From NCBI GenBank assembly GCA_033961575.1, contig CM066736.1:88457352-88521351 (forward strand): 64,000 nt of DNA, read 5' to 3'. This document shows positions 3,330 to 51,696 of the stretch, piece by piece. Numbering within the stretch: position 1 is the first letter of the stretch; every line of letters begins with the position of its first letter. The DNA comes from Aselliscus stoliczkanus (lineage: Eukaryota; Chordata; Mammalia; Chiroptera; Hipposideridae). A program made the position numbers and the translations under genes. Under the pieces are notes generated by a model. It did no database searches. It was given only the letters and a program-made list of their open reading frames with translations, and had not been told where the DNA came from.

Positions 3330-3499
3330 TCTCCTTTATTTTTGAAGGATATTTTTTGAATCTGTCACTGAATCTTAGTTTAGGTAGCATTTTCTTTTAG
3401 CACTTTAAAGATAATATTCTGTCCTCTTTTGACTTCCATGGTTTCTAATGAGAACTCAGCTATTAGACCTACTATTGCTCCTTTGAAAGTAATGCATCT

Positions 3500-6625: not shown

Positions 6626-7971
6626 TTAAAAAAGCCCTTTTAACATTTCTTGCAATGCTGGCTTGGTGGTAATGAATTCCTTAAGCTTATTCTTTTCTGA
6701 GAAGCTCTTTGTTTCTCCTTCACTTTTAAGTGATAGCCGTGCTGGGTAGAGCAATCTTGGTTTTAGGCCTTTATTTTGTGTCACTTTGAATATCTCCTGC
6801 CACACCCTTCTGGCCTGCAGAGTTTCTGTAGACAAGTCAGCTGTTAGTCTAACAGGAGTTCCTTTGTATGTAACCTGCTGTCTTTCTCTTGCAGCCTCTA
6901 GGATTCTGTCTCTGTCTTTAACCTTTGCCATTTTGACTATGATGTGTCTTGGTGTGGACCTGTTTGGGTTCAGCTTGTTTGGAACTCTCTGCACTTCCTG
7001 GGCATGTATGTTGATTTCCTTCACCAGGGTGGGGAAGTTTTCAGTCATTATTTTTGCAAATACATTCTTGACCCCTTGCTTCTTCTCTTCTCCTTCTGGT
7101 ATCCCTATGATTCGAAGGTGGTTGCGCTTCACCTTGTCCCATAGGGCTCTTAAACTATTTTCATTGTTTTTTATTCTTTGGTCTTTTTGCTGTGCCAACT
7201 GGGTGAGTTCTGTTATTTTATCTTCCAAATCGCTGATCCGCTCCTCTGCTTCATCTACTCTACTGGTGATTCCTTCGAGTGTGTTCTTCATTTCAGTTAT
7301 TGTATTCTTTAGTTCTAACAGGTTGTTTTTTATGGTTTCCCTATCCTTCTTTATGTCCTCGCTAAGTTCCTTAAACATTCTTTTTTTTTTTTAATTTTTT
7401 TTTTTTTAATTGGGGAATTGGGGGAGAGGAACAGCGTTGGGGAATCAAGGAAGGGGAACAGACAAGTTGCTGTCTTTTTGTTCTTCAGTCTAGTTGCGGA
7501 GGACGTTGCTTCACTGGCCCATGTTGGTATCGTCATTGCGCTCTTCCTGGATGAGGCAGATGGGTCGCTGGCCTCTGGATGGTCGCTCACTGCGGCTATT
7601 GGCAGCTCATGCTGGCTGCCAGCCACTCACGCTGGCTACTGGCCACTCACTGTAGCCTATGGCAGCCCACTGCAGCAGGGCTGCAGCCTACACCATTGCC
7701 GGGGCTCACACAGCCGAGCTTCAGGTGGAGCTGTCGTTAGCTGCAGAGGGCAGTGTCACTGGCCCTCACATGTGGGATCCGAACCGGGGCTGCTGGCATC
7801 TCAAAACCAGCTCTTAACCAGTGCGCCACTTGGCCGGCCCTCCTTAAACATTCTTATCATCAGTGTTCTAAACTCTGTCTCTGAAAGGTTGGATCCCTTT
7901 GTTTCATTTGGTTCCATTTCTGTAGGTTTCTTCTGATCTTTTACTTGTGACATGTTTCTTCGTTTTCCCAT
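6626..7971 (-). pseudogene. L1-type ORF1 of element A, interrupted by one SINE
   Basis: ORF1p is the RNA-binding chaperone of L1 elements, forming trimers through a coiled coil. The N-terminal piece starts with ATG at 7971 (MGKRRNMSQ) and the main piece covers 7378-6626. Removing the SINE and one copy of its duplication leaves 873 nt, which is exactly in frame and corresponds to 290 residues plus stop. The coiled coil is visible in a heptad-rich Glu/Lys/Leu stretch (about residues 45-115). It is followed by the RRM-like segment with RIIGIPEGEE and the C-terminal domain with RHIIVKMAKVKDRDRIL and YKGTPVRL. It is a little shorter than the human ORF1p of about 338 residues. The SINE supplies a stop, so the present copy is broken. 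Confidence 0.85.
7383..7840 (-). repeat. Long SINE (about 458 bp) inside ORF1 of element A
   Basis: Subfamily I. The perfect 15-bp target-site duplication tccttaaacattctt lies at 7368-7382 and 7841-7855. The T-run at the left is two runs separated by aa, so the tail is A-rich and long. It separates the first 38 or so ORF1 codons from the rest and is the only lesion visible in that ORF. Confidence 0.9.
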
Positions 7972-9079: not shown

Positions 9080-12000
9080 TCCCCATGACTATTTTGAAAC
9101 TACCAATTTGTACTTCTTAATCCCTTCACCTTTTTCACCCTGTCCCCAACCCCTTCCCATTTATGACCCCAACAAATCAAGTACCTATCTGATACTATAC
9201 ATCCTTTTTTTTGGTTACAATATTATTGTAACAATATTTGGTTACAATATTGTTACAATATTATTGACTATAGTCCTTATGCTATACCCTATATTCCCAT
9301 AACTAGTTTGTAACAACGAATTTGTACAAAATTCCTTCCCCTTTTTTCACCCACATCCCCAAACCTCTTCCCATCTGGCAGTCATCAAAATGTTTTCTGT
9401 TTCTATGAGTTTGTTTCTATTTTGTTCTTTAGGTTCCACATATAAGTGAAATAACGTTGAATCTGTCTTTCTTTGTCTGACATACTCCACTCAGCACAAC
9501 ACTCTCTAGGTCCATCCATGCTGCTGCACAGGTGGTGAGAGACCATTCTCTTCCATGGCCGAACAATACTCCATCATATGTATGTACCACCTACGCTTTA
9601 TTCATTCTTCCATTGATGAACATGCAGGCAGCCTCCACATCTTAGCCATTGTAAACAATGTTACAATGAACATATAGATGCCCACATCCCCTCAAAGTAG
9701 TGATTTGGGTTTCTTAAGATAAATACCCAGAAATGGGATTACTGAGTCCTTCCTTGTCTCTTGTTATAGTCTTTAAGTCTATTTTTGTTTGGTATAAGTA
9801 TTGATATCCCAGCTTTTTCTGTTTGTTTGTTTCCATTTTCATGAAATATCATTTTCCATCCCTTTATTTTCAGTCTCTGTGTGTCTTTCAATCTGAAGCG
9901 AGTCTCTTATAGGCAGGATATGTAGGGATTTTGTTTTCTTATCTACTCAGCCCTCCAACGTTGTTTGATTAGGACATTTAATCCATTTACATTGAAAATA
10001 ATTGTTGCTAGACATGTAGCTATTGCCATTTCATTATTCATAATTTAAATCTCTCTCTCTCTCTCTTTTCATCTTAAATAAGTCCCTCAAACACTCCTTG
10101 TGGTACTGATTTTATGGTGATGAACTCCTTTAGCTTTTTCTTATCTGGGAAGCTCTTTATCTATCCTTTGATTTTAAATGATAGCTTTGCTGGGTAGAAT
10201 ACCCTTGGTTGTAGGTCCTTGCTTCTCATTACTTTGAATATTCCTGCCAATCTCTTCTGGTCTGCAATATTTCTGTTGAGAAATCAACTGACAATCTTAT
10301 GGGAGCTCCCTTATAAGTTACTAGTTGCTTTTCTCTTGCTGCTTTTAGGATTCTCTCTTTGTCTTTAACCTTTGCCATTTTAATTATAATGTGTCTTGGT
10401 GTGAACCTGTTTGGGTTCATTTTGTTTGGGATCTGGGCTTTCTGGGCTTGTATGTCTATTTCCTTTGCCAGGTTAGGAAAGTTTTCAGTCATTGTTTCTT
10501 CAAATATGTTCTCAATCCCTTGCTCCCTCTTTCCTTCTGGTACCCCTACGATGTGAATGTTGTGACCTTTGATGTCCAGAGATCTCTTAAACTATCCTCA
10601 TTTTTTGGAATTCTTTTTTCCTTTTGCTGTTCATATTGAGCGTTTTTTGCTGCCTTATCTGCCAAATCTTTGATTCAATCCTCTGTCTCATCTAGTCTGC
10701 TGGTGAGTCATTCTAGTGCATTCTTCATTTCAGTTATTATATTCTTCACTTCACTTCACTTTTTCATAGTTTCTATGTCTTTTTTTTTTTTAACACTTTC
10801 TATCTCTTTGTTGAAGTTCTCACTAAGTTCTTTGAGCATCCTGGTAACCAGCGTTTTGAACTCTGTCTCTGGTAGGTTGTTTGTGTCCATTTCATTTAGT
10901 TCTTTTTTTGTGGAGTTTTCTCCTGTTCATTCATTTTTTTCTTTCCTCATTTTGGCTGCCTCTCTGTGTTTGTTTCTCTGTATTAGGTATATCTGCTATG
11001 TCTCCCCACCTTGGCCAAGTGGCCTTATATAGTAGGTGCCCTGTGGGTCCCTGGCACAGTCTCCCTGGTCACCTGCTGCAGGTGCTCCAGGAATGTCACT
11101 TGTGTGGGTTGTGTGTGGTCTTCTGTTATAGTTGAGCTTTGATTGCTATTGGCACATCAATGGGTGGGATTGACCCATAGGATGATTTGGCTGTGGGGCT
11201 TGACTGCTGTGCAGGGGGCTTACCATGCTGAGTGGGGATTTGCCTCACTCATCTCTGGTGCCTGTTGAGATTGCCCTTTGTGTATGCTGCTTGTGGGACT
11301 AATTGGGTGGTGCTCTGCTGTAGTCTGAAGCCAACCTCCAAGTATGTTGGTTCTGAACCTCTTGGGAGGGGCTCTGGTGCAGGGCCAGGTCACCCACTGC
11401 GTATGACCAGCCGGGGACTACCTCATAAGAGCTACAAAGTGATCCATGGTTGTTTGCTGCCTGTGCTAAACCTGGAGGCATGTGGGAGAGGCCACGCTCT
11501 GAACTGAGGTCAGCTGCCTCTAGTACCCGGCCTGGGGTAGCTTCGCAAAAAGCCAGGACATACTGAGGTCTATTGCCACTTGCTGGCTCCCTTAAGGTTC
11601 AGCCACTGTTAAAGTCATGTGCAGTACACAGGTTGGATGAGGAAAGGCCTCAGGGGGTCACTAAAGTGGAAAGAGTTGTGTTCTCCTGTTTAGTGTAGAT
11701 TCTGGATTGGTGTCAGTGCTGAGCCTGGAGCTACTCAGCAAAAGTTTCAGAGTACATCAAGGTCAGTTTCTGTCAACCTGGGGCCCTCAGACTCTGATCA
11801 TTTTCTAAGAAAAAGTGAAATGTGGGCAGGGCTGGCTGCTCATAGAGAAAGTGCCTCTGGTGTTGGGGGAGTTGGGTAGGGTGGGGTCTCAGTGAGTCAG
11901 CAGGGCAGTGCAGCAAAGCTCACCAGGCCAATCAGATTCAGATTTGGCGATGTAGGGGGAGGGCTCAACACAGGAAAGATAGTGTCTGCCTGCTGGCTGC

Positions 12001-43350: not shown

Positions 43351-43458
43351 CTTTTTTTTTTTTTGAGAGCAGCGTCACTGGCCCTCATATGTGGGACCCA
43401 AACCAGGGCCACTGGCTTCCCAAGCCAGTGGTTAACCACTGTGCCACTCGGCTGGCCC
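43351..43458 (-). repeat. Short SINE
   Basis: The duplication ttaaattgcattt lies at 43338-43350 and 43459-43471. The head (cggctggccc) is at the right. Confidence 0.9.
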
Positions 43459-43728: not shown

Positions 43729-43805
43729 TTACAGCTCAGCAGGAAGGAACAGCAGGACAAGGAGGCCAGGAAGCAGCAGGAGAAATGCAGGGCTTTCTGT
43801 TATTC
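43729..43805 (-). pseudogene. ART2: Last exon of the ART2-like gene (GPI-attachment signal)
   Basis: On the minus strand a pyrimidine-rich tract ending ctctgcag (acceptor at 43807-43806) precedes a 77-nt exon. It encodes a short polar stretch followed by a strongly hydrophobic tail (residues AFLLLLPGLLVLLFLPAEL) and a TAA stop at 43731-43729. Its phase fits the donor of the catalytic exon at 46091: one base from there plus two here make a Gly codon. In ART2/RT6 proteins such a tail is cleaved and replaced by a GPI anchor, putting the enzyme on the outer cell surface. This exon itself looks undamaged. It is marked as a pseudogene because the upstream exon is split. Confidence 0.75.
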
Positions 43806-46090
43806 CTGCAGAGGGAGGAAGAGAAGCGAAGGTTTCTGTGTGGGGTTTCTCAAGACACGGGACTCCCAAACTTTTTGAGTTTTGCTCTAGGCTCAAAAAA
43901 ACCCAAAGGGTGGACTCTAGGAGTTCCCTATACTTGGCCAGCAATTAGACTGTCCTCTTGGCTTTCAAGAATTCCTGAGTGCTCAGGAATACCAGAGAGA
44001 GAGTGGACTGTGAGGGCACATCCTTTTGGTCCTCTGAATTGAAGGTCACCTTGAATAGAACTGAGCCCTCAGACCTGATGGGCCCCTCAGCCCTCCCCTA
44101 TCGCCACTTCTCAGGCCCCTGTGCTCCCAGCTACAGGTGCCTCAGTAAGAAAGGTCTTCCCTGGCCACTGTGGGAGCCCCTCCGTGCTTGTCTTTGTCCA
44201 CCCAGGAAGATGTTTCTGGGTCTGCACCTCCTGGAAGTTCATCTTGTACAGCCACATATATACTCCTTCTCCACTAACCAGTGTCCACTGGCGTTCTGCC
44301 TCTGGGTGGAATCTGACTTCCTCTCCTGGGGTTCTCAGCTTAGCCTGCCCAAATCTAAATGAACATCAATCACTGGGCCTGAGATGGTGGACTACATCAG
44401 CTTTCCTCTGCCAGACTGCTTACCTGGCTATCCTGTTTTCAACAGGCTTCATCCAAATTCAAAATTCCTACATGTAAAATCTCGGGGACCCCCAGGAATC
44501 ACTCCTGTGGTCCCATTTCTACCCCAAACATTTCTCTTGCTTCCATCAGTCCTTTACAGCATAAAGACAATTTGGTTGAAATGTGCAGGATACTCAGTCC
44601 CTCTGCAGCTCAGATCCACTTCTGGCTGGACCCTGGCACCTCAACAAAACTTAAATTCAACAACATGTACTGGAGCCCAAGTCGGGTATTAATGACAGGC
44701 TCTGGGTGCAGCGGGAACAGGAAGACAAAGTCTCTGGCATTATAGGGATCCTCAGACTGAGCAAATTATCACCATAGAGATAGTGAGTATGTGGCTGAGA
44801 TGCATACAAGGTTCTCCACGGGAAAAAAAAAAAGACAGTAGTTGCTGAGCAATGTCTATGTGCCAGGCAATAAGACAAGCACTTTTAAAACTCTCCCAGA
44901 AATCCTACTGAGGTATTATTAATTTGTATCCTCATTTTACAAATGAGGCATTTGAGACACAGCTTGCTCAGGTAACTTGCCCAAAGTCACAGAGCTAGTG
45001 GTTGTTGAGCCTGGACTACCACTGAGGTCATCTGACCCCAAACCTGTGGCATGGAGCATGGTACGATATTTAATTTTGTCAGAAAGTATCAACGAAGGCT
45101 TACCATTGGGAGTGGTATTTGAGCCAGGTCTTGAGAAATAATTACCATACTAAATTGATAGTATCTTAGATTGGGTGAAATATGACATGAAGTTAAAGAA
45201 ACTTCAGGCCAGAAAGAACGACTGATGTCCTTGCACAGAAACCTGAGAGTCAGGACTCTTTGGGAATGGTTTTAAAACGGAGGCTCCTAATGGCACTTTC
45301 TCACCCATCACGGTGCTGGATAGGTCATAGCCCTTTGCCTGTTACTATTTCCAGCTATTAATGATATGCCTTCATTGAGGTTTGTTTCCTCTGGTTTTAC
45401 CGTCTCTAACCTTCATCAGTCTAGGCATCATCCCTGTGCATGTGGTCTACTGTATGGCCCGTTCATGTAAACCCTTTCAGTGCTTTGATCTCCTCAGCTC
45501 CAACACCACTCCCCTGTTCTTCAATCTAGCCAACTGCTTCCAAGGAACTGACCTCCAACCGACTCAGAACTTGTAAACTACACACGCTGTAAATCTCAAG
45601 GTCCACCATCCTGTTTTCTGACCTCACTCCCCAGTCTGCTCAGCTTTCACTCTCCCCCTCTGGAACACCTCATGGAGAACACCAGCTCCCTAACCTCCCT
45701 TGATCACCATGGCCACAGCCTCAGTTCAGGTACCTGGACATTTGCCTGGATTACTGCAGTGGCCACACCAATCTGCCTGGAACCAGGTTTCCTGACTCCC
45801 CTGACCCTGTCTTTTGTCCACATTTTGGCATTTTCCTTGACTCATGTTCCCTGGTATCCAGCAGGTCTCTCTGATCTTTCTGTACAGCAGGGAGCTAGAG
45901 AGCTTGGCTGGTCTAGAAACTGTCTGAGTTGCTCTCTATTCCAGGACATCACCCTATGCACCTAACACTCTTCAGCAGTTGGCTGAAAGCACCTATTGTT
46001 CTCTGCCCTGGTGGCTTCTGGTAGCAGAGCATCCCCTCTTATTTCATGATGGCCCCACCACTCTCACCAGGAACACAGACCCAGACTCAC
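43806..46090 (-). other. ART2: Intron of the ART2-like gene
   Basis: The 2,285-bp intron is bounded by a gtgagt donor (46090-46085, minus strand) and a cag acceptor preceded by a C/T-rich tract. It holds a MIR at about 44900-45060 ('cctcattttacaaatgaggc', 'ccaaagtcacagagctagtg') and otherwise unassigned sequence. I saw no further exon, but a small one could be missed. Confidence 0.65.
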
Positions 46091-46690
46091 CTGAGCTGTT
46101 GAAATTGCTTAAATTGTTAGTGGAACTATAGAAGCAGTTGAGTTTACTCTTAGATTTTGTGGGACTTTCAAGTAAAATTTCATTGTAGTTTTTATGTGAG
46201 CTTTGCATGGTGACTTTCTGATACACCTCGTAACCTGGAATTAGCACTTCCTCTTCAGCTGGATGCATAGAAAATTCTTGAATATTAACACCCAAGCAGG
46301 TCTGGATGGTAAACAGGGTCCTGTTTTCTCCTAGAAATCTTAAAGGTACAGACATAGACAAAGACGATGAGGTAAATTGGCCAAAACGTACTTTTTTTCT
46401 CCCATTGTCATGAAGTTTGGTGTCACAACCTCTATAGACTGTGTAACAGTTCCCAGTAGTGAGAAGCTGAAGAGCTCTTGTCAAATAATAATGGAAGGCT
46501 TTGAAGTGAAAGTTCTTTTCATTCTGACGGAATTCTCTTACAGCTTTGTTGAATTCTGTTGCAATTCTCCCAGTATAGGCTATTAGAGCTGTGCCATGGA
46601 AATCATTGAATTGTTTTGGATAATTTTTGTTCTTTGTTTGCTCCCATTTTTCCTTTGCCATTTCCCATTCATTTTTAAAATTTTTATTCA
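46091..46690 (-). pseudogene. ART2: ART2-like catalytic exon, 3' part (split by the EIF4B copy)
   Basis: Ecto-mono-ADP-ribosyltransferases move ADP-ribose from NAD to arginine on surface proteins, or hydrolyse NAD. This 600-bp part of the exon keeps the family signatures in order: DFHGTALIAYTG, FKAFHYYLTRALQLL, the catalytic Arg in CYTVYRGC, the Ser motif GQFTSSSLS, TCLGVNIQEFS, and the acidic motif EEEVLIPGYEVYQ. The R-S-ExE set needed for arginine-specific transfer is therefore complete. Cysteines of the extracellular fold (TCLG, NCFY) are present. The exon ends at a canonical donor (gtgagt, 46090). It has no internal stop. The upstream part continues at 50646 after the inserted retrocopy. 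Similarity is closest, from memory, to rodent ART2/RT6; human ART2 is known as a pseudogene. Confidence 0.85.
46677..46690 (+). repeat. Target-site duplication, left copy, of the EIF4B retrocopy
   Basis: The word aaaatttttattca is repeated exactly at 50632-50645. The bases before it (ttttt then aaaa) match the L1 endonuclease target TT/AAAA, as expected for L1-mediated retrotransposition. Confidence 0.9.
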
Positions 46691-49600
46691 GCTCTCTCCC
46701 TCTCCCAACATGGCGGCCTCAGCAAAAAAGAAGAATAAGAAGGGGAAGACTATCTCCCTAACAGACTTTCTGGCTGAGGATGGAGGGGCTGGTGCAGGAC
46801 ACACCTATGTCCCCAAACCAGTCAGCAGGGCTGATGAAACAGACTACCTGGAAGGATATGTTTCAACCACTTGGCACAGCAATGATGACGATGTGTATAG
46901 GGCACCTCCAATTGACCGTTCCATCCTGCCCACTGCTCCACGGGCTGCTCGGGAACCCAATATTGACAGGAGCCGTCTTCCCAAATCACCACCCTACACT
47001 GCTTTCCTAGGGAACCTGCCCTATGATGTGACAGAAGACTCCATTAAGGAATTCTTTAGAGGATTAAATATCAGTGCAGTGCGTTTACCACGTGAACCCA
47101 CCAATCCAGAGAGGTTGAAAGGTTTTGGTTATGCCGAGTTTGAGGACCTGGATTCCTTGTTCAATGCCCTGAGCCTCCATGAAGAGTCTCTAGGTAACAG
47201 GAGAATTCGAGTGGACGTTGCTGATCAAGCACAGGATAAAGACAGGGACGATCGTTCTTTTGGCCGAGATAGAAATCGGGATTCTGACAAAACAGATACA
47301 GACTGGAGGGCCCGTCCTACCACAGACAACTTTGATGACTACCCGCCTAGAAGAGGTGATGATAGCTTTGGAGACAAGTATCGAGATCGAGATCGTTATG
47401 ATTCAGACCGATACCGTGATGGGTATCGGGACAGTTACCGTGATGGTCCACGCCGGGATATGGATCGATATGGGGGCCGTGATCTCTATGATGACAGAGG
47501 CAGCAGAGACTATGCTAGAGGCTATGATTCCAGGATAGGCAGTGGCAGAAGAGCAGTTGGTAGTGGGTACCGGAGGGATGATGACTACAGAGGAGGTGGG
47601 GACCGCTATGAAGACAGATATGACAGACGCGACGATCGGTCAAGGGGCTCCAGAGATGATTACTCTCGGGATGATTATAGGCGCGATGATAGAGGTCCCC
47701 CCCAAAGACCCAAACTGAATCTAAAGCCTCAGAGCACTCCTAAGGAAGATGATTCCTCTGCTAGCACCTCCCAGTCCAGTCGAGCAGCCTCAATCTTTGG
47801 AGGGACAAAGCCTGTCGACACAGCTTCTAGAGAACGAGAAGTGGAGGAACGACTACAGAAGGAACAGGAGAAATTGCAGCATCAGCTGGATGAGCCAAAA
47901 CTAGAGTGACGGCCTCGGGAGAGACACCCAAGCTGGCGAAGTGAGGAAACTCAGGAACGGGAACGGTCAAGGACAGGAAGTGAGTCATCACAGTCTGGGA
48001 CTTCAGCCACCTCTAGCAGAAGTAAGTCAGATCAGGATGCACGAAGGAGAAAGAGTGAGAAGTCTCTAGAAAATGAAACATTCAATAAGGAGGAAGACTG
48101 TCACTCTCCAACTTCTAAGCCTCCCAAACCTGAACAGCCTCTAAAGGTAATGCCAGCCCCTCCACCAAAGGAGAATGCTTGGGTGAAGCGAAGTTCTAAC
48201 CCTCCTGCTCGATCTCAGAGCTCAGACACAGAGCAGCAATCTCCTACAAGTGGTGGTGGGAAAGCAGTTCCAGCTCAACCATCAGAGGAAGGACCATGAA
48301 GGAAAGATGAAAATAAAGTGGATGGGGTGAGTGTGCCAATTGGCCAAAGTGGGAACCCCAGCCGTGGGCCAGGAGATGGAGGGATCAAAGACCACTGGAA
48401 GGAGTCAGATAGGAAAGATGGCAAAAAGGATCAAGACTCCCGATCTGCACCTGAGCCAAAGAAACCTGAAAAAAAATCCAGCTTCTAAGTTCAGTTCTGC
48501 AAGCAAGTATGCTGCTCTCTCTGTTGATGGTGAAGATGAAAACGAGGGAGAAGATTACACCGAATAGACCTCCACTTCCTGTGCTTTCTCCGGGTCTCTC
48601 TCCACCCTGGAACATTTGAGAGCAAATCAAACCTCTGTCCAGACAAGACAAAATAAAACTCACCATCTCCTGGAGACCTTTCTTAACTTTTTTTAAAAAA
48701 ACAAACCAAAATGAAATGAAATGAAATGAAATTCTTTTGCATGCTGCTGCAGCCTTTAAAGTATTGAACTAACTGTAGAATCACATATGTAGCCAGAGAG
48801 AAAGAGACATATTTTAACGGAAAAGTTGTGCATTTTTATGACACATGCGATTGCCTGTGTGATTAGTGCCTAGGGGCCTCCATTTAGCAGAATGGCAATG
48901 ACAGTGATGCAATGTCTGGAATCTGGTTGGGCAGTAGGGCAAGTATGAAGAAGAGATTTCTACCTTTAATTCTTATTGTTCTAATGTGGCATACATGAAT
49001 CCTCAAGTATCTGAATAAATTCTCCATCCTTGGAAAGGTAGGTTTAGTCTCTGAAGTTGTTTTAGTCTCCAGGAGGCTGCCAGCTCCCCCGTACTTAGTT
49101 CTGAGTTACAGGGGCCAGCCTAGGGGGAATTCCTTCATTTTACCCCCCAGGGGGGTAGCTGGGAATGAGTCTACAGGCCACTAAAGAACAGGACTGCTTG
49201 GTGACCAAAATAAGTGGGAAAATCATGGTTTGAAAAGGAGCTTTGGGGAGGTGATTAATTATTTTGCACCAGTAATAGTGGAAAATGGTCTGACCTCCAA
49301 TAAACACACGAATGCTTACTTCCCGGAGCAGGAAGCACTTTACGGGTTGTGGGAATTCCCAAGTCTCTTATGTGTCCTGGTTTCACCCTTTCTTAAACAC
49401 TGTCCTTTCTGAAAGTTCAAGTGTATCCATATTCTGTTGAAATCTTGAGGCTTTAAAAATTTAGACTCTAGTTGTTGTCTTATGTTCCTCATGCTACTCT
49501 TTCCTGTTACCTCCCTAAAAGCAGGTTCTGTTTAAGCCACATACCCAGTTGACATTCCGTATCAATCTCTGGGAGCTGTCAAATTAGGAATTGCTGCTTT

Positions 49601-50631
49601 TCTCAAGCAAATTTTGGCTCCTTTATGTTTTTTGACTCCGGTTCTCCTGCTCCTGCCTCTTTGACCCCTTTCACACCTCAAAAAACTGTAGAATTAATGG
49701 TCTTAGGTGGTGAGTGAGGGTGGATAAATAAGGACAGTTAAATTGGGAGCCTTTCTTATGACCTTGATTGGGTTTTTTGGGGCATTTTTTTTTTCCACAG
49801 GTTTCCTTTTCTCCACTGAAATCCCACACCAATGTTTGGATTTTTAATGTGGCCTAGACCAATGTGTGGTTTTGTTTGGGTTTTTTAGCATCCCTTGAGA
49901 GAATAAATGATAATGAAGAGAACTATTTAACAAGGTCCTGGTTTCTCTTGCAACACAATAGCTTAACTTGCCTGCTTTTATGTGCACCTTTTACTGTCAG
50001 CTCGGTAGATGGCATCCTTATGGGCAATATTGGTACCTGCAGAGAAATGATACCTTGGTCTCTTGTTTGCAAGCCCTTCTCCCATCGGTTCTAGGTTAGA
50101 CTCTGTCCAGCCATGCAGGGGTGTTGGTTTATGAGTGCTGCAGCAGTGGGCATAATGAATAATTGACCCAGTGGACACAAAAGGCATACCAAGTAAAGTA
50201 ACTTTAAATAACTGGCTTCAGAGGCTAGTAGCTAGGAAGTGGCTTTTAGAAAGAGATACCCAAGGTCGTAAAGGTTTTTTTTTGTTGTTGTTTTTTTCAG
50301 CATTTGTAGATGATGAAAAGGTAGGGATTGCCCTCTTCATGTCTACTTCCTAATAGTTGTATCCCACCCCCAAAAAAAGTGTTTGTTTCTTTTCCCACTG
50401 CCCTACCCTGTCCCCCATTAAAACAGAAAACAGGGATTTATGTCCCATTCTTCGATACGTGTAAAATTTGTACAAAAATATCTTCTATGAAAATGATTTG
50501 TAATCTGTAGACTTAATACCTGGGAAATGTCTTGAGATGTGAATCCCATCCTTTGGGTTGTGGGGTTTTTTTTTGTTTTCTCCAAATAAATATGATCTTT
50601 AAAGTTCAAAAATAAATAAATAAAATAAAAT
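46691..50631 (+). pseudogene. EIF4B: EIF4B processed retrocopy, nearly full-length
   Basis: This is an intronless copy of the mRNA for translation initiation factor eIF4B, which helps eIF4A unwind mRNA 5' ends. The ATG is at 46710 (MAASAKKKNKKGK) after about 19 nt of 5'UTR. The RRM is recognisable (about residues 96-173; AFLGNLPYDV and KGFGYAEF), and the Asp/Arg/Tyr/Gly-rich region follows. Lesions: CGA to TGA at 47907-47909 (codon 400; the human protein has 611 residues), a second TGA at 48297-48299 from GGA (about codon 530), and one extra A in the A-run at 48469-48476 that shifts the frame. The end GEDENEGEDYTE and its stop (48565-48567) are in the shifted frame. A 3'UTR of about 2 kb ends with AATAAA (50585-50590) and an A-rich tail. 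Any protein made would be the first 399 residues, keeping the RRM; expression is unknown. Confidence 0.95.
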
Positions 50632-50645
50632 AAAATTTTTATTCA

Positions 50646-50778
50646 CTTCCAGTTCTTCTTTTAACAGCTTGGGTGCTTTTTTCTCCATTTCTTCAGTACA
50701 GCCCTCAAACTGATCATCAAACGCATTTTCAGCCATGTCTAGCTGACATGACTTGGTTAGCCATGCCAGGTCAATTAC
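50646..50778 (-). pseudogene. ART2: ART2-like catalytic exon, 5' part
   Basis: The 5' part of the split exon encodes the start of the mature enzyme, readable as LDMAENAFDDQFEGC, a hallmark of vertebrate ecto-ARTs, followed by EEMEKKAPKLLKEE. It meets the target-site duplication in the same frame as the part beyond the retrocopy. An acceptor-like ctctttttacag lies just upstream (AG at 50780-50779), so this may be the exon start. The signal-peptide coding part is not resolved: an ATG at 50857 or 50887 opens a hydrophobic-looking frame, but it is out of phase with the enzyme and meets a stop, so either an upstream exon is used or a frame lesion exists here. Confidence 0.75.
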
Positions 50779-50899: not shown

Positions 50900-51590
50900 G
50901 GATTCATACATGGTACATGTATGAAGGCAATCTTATTCAATGCGTAGTGTTAAAAGCAAAAGCTAGGCTTACTCTGTTTTGTTCCTGGTATTTTTAAAAA
51001 TCTTTTCAGATTCATGCTTTCTCATGTACTTTAGTCATGGACTCAACTTTAGAACTCTATAGTTTCAGAGATGTGAAGGAAAAGTAAGGTCAGCTCGATG
51101 TGGGGTGGGAGCAGGTGGTATATATTACTGTTGTGTTAGCCACTGAGTTAGGATCAAACAGTGAACTGCTATAGCTAGAAGAGATGTCATCTCCAAGTTG
51201 AAAAATAACTGCAAATAAATATGAGATAATTCAAGTGAGGTGTGAACATTAGTATTATTATGATTATGCTGATAACTTAGCTCTGTGTTAATAAATCCCT
51301 GCTTAGATCTGGAAGCCCAGGCTCCTATTTACACAGCTCCCTGCACAACTCAGGATTTTCTGTAAGCAGCTCTGCCTGGGTCCTCCTACAGGCAGGGAAG
51401 AGGTGACTCTGACCCCTGGCATCAGTAGTGAGCTGGCAAAGAAATAATTGATCCTGGTCATGGGCAGAGCTGCCTGTCATGTAGGTCACCAGTTAGAAAA
51501 AACAGATCACGTTTGAGAGGATCCCTCACAGGCCCTGACATTTTCCTCCGCTTTAGAGAATACTATGAGTACTCTCACAAATGTTAAAAA
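50900..51590. other. Upstream flank of the ART2-like gene, no exon recognised
   Basis: AT-rich sequence with no clear repeat. A first non-coding or signal-peptide exon could lie here or farther right; none can be supported from the sequence. Confidence 0.4.
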
Positions 51591-51599
51591 AAAAGAAAA

Positions 51600-51696
51600 G
51601 GGCCGGCCGAGTGGCGTGGTGGTTAAGAGCTGGCTTGGGATGCCAGCAGTCCCAGTTCAGGTCCCGCATATGAGGGCCAGTGACACTGCCCTCAAA

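What the first reader, a model, noticed from the sequence alone, without database searches (positions are those of the whole stretch)
43729..50778. EIF4B retrocopy split the catalytic exon of an otherwise intact-looking ART2-type gene
The retrocopy (46691-50631) is flanked by a perfect 14-bp duplication (46677-46690, 50632-50645) with an L1-type TT/AAAA target. Both flanks encode one ecto-ADP-ribosyltransferase on the opposite strand, and the frame is continuous through the target word. The R, S and ExE catalytic motifs, the splice donor, the last-exon acceptor and the GPI tail are all preserved. This points to gene loss by a single retroposition event, with little decay of the target since. 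Human ART2 is a pseudogene while rodents keep it, so an independent loss in this lineage would be notable.
Basis: partly seen in the sequence, partly recalled or inferred. Interest (0 to 1): 0.88.

Follow-up and report, generated by a model that had tools for sequence, protein, structure and literature searches.

The report
Bat immune gene split by retrocopy
In a leaf-nosed-type bat, a copy of a translation-factor messenger RNA was pasted into the main exon of the only ART2 immune-enzyme gene found in the genome, so the gene looks dead; it is a well-preserved but mechanistically ordinary gene loss.

Summary
A full-length EIF4B retrocopy (46691-50631) with a perfect 14-bp target duplication sits antisense inside the catalytic exon of an ART2-type gene. 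Joined in a script, the flanks give one open exon that aligns to a Hipposideros larvatus ART2-like protein without an indel. I add five things. (1) The host is a hipposiderid-like bat (ART4 95% identical to H. armiger). (2) This is the only ART2-type locus found in its 2.19-Gb assembly; H. larvatus has at least four ART2-like proteins, and the window gene groups with one of them. (3) The parental EIF4B gene is in the same genome, and the retrocopy carries about 1% substitutions of its own, roughly 3-7 million years at a recalled neutral rate. (5) That exon's splice donor looks broken: no GT follows the last codon, and the only nearby GT gives an immediate stop. So the gene has two inactivating lesions, and "otherwise intact" and "single event" are not established. 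Which lesion came first cannot be decided here. It is a new case of a known kind: unitary loss with L1-type exon disruption, parallel to human ART2P.

The parts
51128..51190 (-). ART2 exon 1 (start codon and signal peptide, 21 codons)
   Evidence: P0005 and P0064 searches of the own genome match here; 20 of 21 residues as in P0001
51122..51129 (-). defective-looking splice donor of exon 1: no GT directly after the last codon; the only GT overlaps the last codon and leads to an immediate stop
   Evidence: sequence and translation; intron phase 0 inferred from what looks like intron read-through in P0007 and P0034
50646..50778 (-). 5' part of ART2 exon 2 (mature N-terminus)
   Evidence: Pfam ART 1.3e-9, profile positions 1-31, for 50647-50778; acceptor TTTTTACAG directly before 50778
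50632..50645 (.). target site duplication, right copy
46691..50631 (+). EIF4B retrocopy, full length, antisense to ART2; broken reading frame
   Evidence: matches visible spliced EIF4B of the same genome, 76 differences at 3420 sites
46710..47909 (+). remaining EIF4B reading frame of the retrocopy (399 codons), ended by a nonsense change at 47907; further nonsense at 48298 and +1 shift near 48468
50609..50631 (+). A-rich tail of the retrocopy
   Evidence: begins where the match to the parental gene ends
46677..46690 (.). target site duplication, left copy
46091..46690 (-). 3' part of ART2 exon 2 (catalytic core with the R, S and E-x-E residues), donor CAG/GTGAGT intact; includes the left TSD copy
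   Evidence: Pfam ART 1.1e-58 for 46092-46676; rat ART2 1gxy E 3.1e-70; donor
43729..43805 (-). ART2 exon 3 (hydrophobic GPI-type tail and stop), acceptor CTGCAG intact
   Evidence: similar tail in P0005 and P0006

Best explanation
The locus is the broken remnant of the last ART2 (T-cell-type ecto-ADP-ribosyltransferase) gene of a hipposiderid-like bat. A capped, polyadenylated EIF4B mRNA was reverse-transcribed and inserted by L1 machinery at a TTTT/AA site in exon 2, antisense to ART2. Translation from the ART2 5' part would now run about ten codons into the A-tail of the insert and stop, so no signal-bearing enzyme should be made. Shown: insert, duplication, tail, parent gene, split frame, no other ART2 locus found in the assembly, and a second lesion at the exon 1 donor. 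Inferred: L1 as the machine, an age of about 3-7 million years, fixation in the species, and that the insertion was the first rather than the second lesion (about 60:40).
For: TSD and insert ends. Parent EIF4B on C1 at about 98%. Retrocopy-only substitutions 27 of 3021 four-way sites plus 6 of 392 three-way sites. The joined exon is open and groups with H. larvatus P0001 at 100/98 support, apart from the three other H. larvatus ART2-like proteins in the tree. ART searches of the own genome with PF01129, P0005 and P0064 give one ART2 locus plus four loci that I read, from recall, as ART1, ART5, ART3 and ART4. L1 ORF1 remnants lie in the window.
Against: The exon 1 donor lesion could be older, and then the insertion hit a dead gene. 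The H. larvatus state is known from annotated proteins only, not from DNA. No reads, population data or RNA were available. The genome search scores only its best candidates.
Confidence: 0.82

Rival explanations
1. ART2 was already dead, for example through the exon 1 donor lesion, and the EIF4B retrocopy landed in a pseudogene as a neutral passenger.
For: The donor lesion alone gives an immediate stop. No counterpart of the other three H. larvatus ART2-like proteins was found in this genome, as if the function had been dispensable.
Against: Exons 2 and 3 (810 bp) carry no stop or frame shift, and the window branch is no longer than that of P0001 (both 0.1), so a long period of decay before the insertion is unlikely. 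By my rough estimate (no call) about one small lesion is expected in the time since the insertion anyway.
Confidence: 0.35
2. The insertion is a young allele segregating in the species, and intact ART2 alleles exist.
For: Only one haplotype was seen; polymorphic retrocopies are known in humans (PMC4151081, passages read).
Against: About 1% retrocopy-specific divergence is much for a segregating neutral allele; the donor lesion lies on the same haplotype.
Confidence: 0.08
3. The interrupted gene still makes something: the insert is spliced out, or a short product starts at an internal ATG of the 3' part.
For: The 3' frame is open and holds the catalytic residues.
Against: That frame lacks a signal peptide and the N-terminal segment. 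The exon 1 donor looks broken as well. Removing the insert exactly would need splice sites at its borders; by eye the border sequences offer none.
Confidence: 0.04
4. Assembly artefact.
For: No reads could be examined.
Against: A misjoin would not create a perfect target duplication, an A-tail and a 5' end at the mRNA start, and the copy differs from its parent at 76 of 3420 sites.
Confidence: 0.01

Closest known systems
Human and chimpanzee ART2P (RT6) pseudogene (Haag et al. 1994, not read; known through PMC4436801 and PMC2576468, passages read)
   Same: Loss of the ART2 gene; other ARTs kept; result is no ART2 enzyme
   Different: The primate genes carry premature stop codons; here a retrocopy splits the catalytic exon and a splice donor is lost; independent lineage
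L1-mediated processed pseudogenes (reviewed in PMC4151081, passages read)
   Same: Intronless mRNA copy, poly(A), 5-20 bp target duplication
   Different: Landed in a coding exon of a gene that is single in this genome
TMF1 retrocopy in CYBB causing chronic granulomatous disease (de Boer et al. 2014, not read; via PMC4151081, passages read)
   Same: Antisense retrocopy inactivates an immune gene
   Different: Intronic and exonised, one patient; here exonic and probably fixed
H. larvatus ART2-like proteins P0001, P0005, P0006, P0064
   Same: P0001 is the apparent orthologue, 84% over 244 columns

Membership tests
L1-mediated retrocopy (processed pseudogene) | lacks the introns of its parent | tested here: met
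   13 visible parental pieces spread over about 30 kb lie in order in the insert; parts of the parental gene are withheld and were not compared
L1-mediated retrocopy (processed pseudogene) | A-rich tail at the mRNA 3' end | tested here: met
L1-mediated retrocopy (processed pseudogene) | target duplication of 5-20 bp and TTTT/AA-type nick | tested here: met
   14 bp perfect; nick read from the sequence by eye
ART2 (ARTC2) ecto-ADP-ribosyltransferase | closer to ART2 than to ART1, 3, 4, 5 | tested here: met
   67% to P0005 against 41-43% for the four other ART loci; tree of 30 rows, own ART1-like locus not included
ART2 (ARTC2) ecto-ADP-ribosyltransferase | R-S-E-x-E catalytic residues (motif named in PMC2576468, passages read) | tested here: met
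   VYRG, FTSSS, EEEVLIP aligned with rat ART2; the window has E where rat 1gxy has Q at the first E
ART2 (ARTC2) ecto-ADP-ribosyltransferase | signal peptide and C-terminal GPI-type tail | tested here: met
   exons 1 and 3 recognised by homology; anchoring itself not tested
ART2 (ARTC2) ecto-ADP-ribosyltransferase | enzyme activity | not testable with these tools
   none; the gene is broken
Unitary pseudogene | no functional copy elsewhere in the genome | tested here: met
   within one assembly of 146 contigs and with only the best candidates scored
Unitary pseudogene | orthologue intact in relatives | tested here: met
Unitary pseudogene | fixed in the species | not testable with these tools
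   one haplotype only

The most novel reading that the evidence does not exclude
A single retroposition abolished the whole ART2-dependent NAD/P2X7 signal of T cells in one bat lineage a few million years ago, convergent with apes, while a relative (H. larvatus) kept at least four copies; the loss was favoured rather than merely tolerated.
Probability: 0.1. Interest if true: 0.62.

Novelty: new member of a known kind. Interest (0 to 1): 0.42.

Why it matters
ART2 is the enzyme that lets extracellular NAD trigger P2X7 on mouse T cells and that human T cells lack (PMC4436801, passages read). A recent, independent and cleanly readable loss in a bat, beside a relative with several copies, gives a natural comparison for what this pathway does, and shows how one retroposition can split a coding exon of a single remaining immune gene.

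Tried and rejected
Mitochondrial identification of the species: the cytochrome b search of the own genome gave five partial, stop-bearing matches on large nuclear contigs only. Chromosomal neighbours were not annotated; flanks L046 and L047 were fetched but not read. Rfam and tRNA scans of the window gave nothing. Pfam on ten other window ORFs gave L1 ORF1 in two; the first of these also passed the cut-off of one coiled-coil family (V-SNARE), which I take as spurious, and another ORF had one sub-threshold match. The EIF4B protein search was made while the genome DNA search was busy; it confirmed EIF4B identity, and its use for dating was superseded by the parental gene. Literature: ten searches. 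Searches found no paper. In the others I saw 2 of 2, 10 of 20, 15 of 27, 10 of 38, 10 of 113, 3 of 3, 8 of 23 and 8 of 30 listings; no title there deals with ART2 loss in bats. Most subscription papers are not held, so absence from print is not shown. The idea that the small number of ART2 lesions points to retained function was rejected: at about 1% divergence I would expect only about one lesion in 0.87 kb of coding sequence (rough estimate, no call).

Full report
Observation. The sequence at 46677-46690 is repeated exactly at 50632-50645. Random zones of 120 start positions at the same spacing share an exact 14-mer in 28 of 5000 placements, and here the two copies abut the ends of an insert that is recognisable on other grounds. 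The insert, 46691-50631, matches the spliced exons of an EIF4B gene elsewhere in the same genome: 76 differences at 3420 comparable sites, 2.2%. The other 521 of 3941 retrocopy bases were not compared, mostly because parts of the parental gene are withheld; the rest is tail and gaps. Seven of the 76 differences fall in one 77-base exon, which I cannot explain. The match ends where an A-rich tail starts. At the 5' end the retrocopy has one extra G before the C-rich mRNA start, where the parental gene has a T. Such an extra G is what reverse transcription through the cap can leave (recalled), so the copy looks full length.

Target gene. Both flanks encode an ART domain on the minus strand: 46092-46676 (Pfam ART 1.1e-58) and 50647-50778 (1.3e-9). 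The larger piece matches rat ART2 in the PDB (1gxy, E 3.1e-70), with the R, S and E-x-E residues in place. Where rat 1gxy has Q the window has E, so an arginine-specific transferase would be predicted for the gene before it broke (recalled structure-function work). Joined in a script, the exon is open throughout and aligns to H. larvatus P0001 without an indel. The exon 2 donor, exon 3 acceptor and GPI-type tail are intact.

Exon 1 (start codon and signal peptide) lies at 51128-51190; it was found by P0005 and P0064 searches of the own genome. Its last codons are the two glutamines seen at this place in the four H. larvatus proteins. Exon 2 begins exactly with the next codon. The proteins P0007 and P0034 start with residues that resemble the window's intron 1 in another frame, as if read through the intron, and in both a glutamine directly precedes the valine of exon 2, as the acceptor CAG would give; so I infer a phase-0 intron. 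In the window no GT follows the last exon 1 codon. The only GT overlaps it, and splicing there gives a stop codon at once. This looks like a one-base loss at the exon border. It could be a base error of the assembly, but taken at face value it is a second, sufficient lesion.

Host and copy number. The window lies on contig C10 of a 2.19-Gb assembly of 146 contigs. Its ART4-like exon is 99% identical to an unnamed protein (P0121) and 95% to Hipposideros armiger; the next named row, Myotis lucifugus, is at 84%. The database is clustered at 90%, so a closer species may be hidden in a cluster. The best ART2 hit is H. larvatus at 83% (120 of 305 hits were listed). I therefore call it a hipposiderid-like bat; the species is not identified. 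Searches with the ART family and with two H. larvatus proteins gave 6, 8 and 8 matches. In every case these are pieces of the window gene plus four other ART loci (C10 89.05 Mb twice, C8, C1), which I read as ART1, ART5, ART3 and ART4 from recall. So one ART2 locus was found. The tree holds 30 rows: the window gene, 26 of the 120 listed hits that I chose, and three of the four other own ART loci. In it the window gene pairs with P0001 (100/98) and excludes the other three H. larvatus proteins, so this lineage probably had, and lost, further ART2 copies too.

Age. With two other EIF4B retrocopies as outgroups, 27 of 3021 four-way sites changed on the retrocopy branch only, and 6 of 392 three-way sites; 19 four-way and 3 three-way sites changed in the parent only. 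Against the reading of a clean split, at 11 four-way sites the retrocopy agrees with the older outgroup copy while the parent agrees with the other copy; these may be parental changes or recurrent ones. Nine further four-way differences are less clear (5, 3 and 1 in the classes). Polarised with the C11 copy first, the retrocopy branch has 47 of 3420 changes. At a recalled neutral rate of 2.2e-9 per site per year the first figure gives 4.1 My (2.5-5.6) and the last about 6 My, so roughly 3-7 My. The retrocopy is itself broken (nonsense at 47907 and 48298, +1 shift near 48468).

Decay of the target. About 1% in 873 bp of ART2 coding sequence means some eight or nine substitutions and, by my rough estimate, about one inactivating small lesion since the insertion. 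One is seen, the donor. The preserved frames therefore neither show function nor prove that the insertion came first. The equal branch lengths of the window gene and P0001 (0.1 each) only speak against a long period of decay before the insertion.

Mechanism. The steps that best fit: L1 endonuclease nicked the bottom strand at TTTT/AA in exon 2, EIF4B mRNA was primed there by its tail and copied to the cap, and repair left the 14-bp duplication. The insert is antisense to ART2, so translation entering from the ART2 5' side ends about ten codons into the tail. The 3' part keeps an open frame with the catalytic residues but has no signal peptide.

Context. In mice ART2.2 lets extracellular NAD gate P2X7 on T cells, while human T cells cannot do this because the orthologous pseudogene has premature stops (PMC4436801, passages read). 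ART2 copy number is known to vary among rat, mouse and human (PMC2576468, passages read). Art2b is listed among human unitary losses (PMC2864566, passages read). An antisense retrocopy that disables an immune gene in a patient is known (CYBB, in PMC4151081, passages read). The present case is therefore a new member of known kinds: well preserved, recent, and interesting mainly for the contrast between no intact ART2 found here and several copies in H. larvatus.

Noticed in passing
G000: C11:54738-58776, C10:106460859-106463982 and others: EIF4B-like DNA occurs at 13 further loci besides the parent and the window copy (66-97% identity by piece), presumably retrocopies; only two were used in comparisons.
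   Followed up: partly
window 46691: An extra G absent from the parental gene precedes the C-rich mRNA start of the retrocopy, as if copied from the cap.
   Followed up: partly
window 6629-7390 and 10232-10591, minus strand: L1 ORF1 remnants (Transposase_22), the first with three L1 ORF1 domains.
   Followed up: no
window, e.g. 43360-43458 and 51603-51690: A tRNA-like SINE, seen by eye in the sequence; similar translated fragments recur in several ORFs of the window.
   Followed up: no
   Followed up: partly
window 46784-46860 (retrocopy exon piece): One 77-base exon of the retrocopy differs from the parent at 7 sites, far above the average of 2.2%; four of the seven agree with the older copy on C10.
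   Followed up: no
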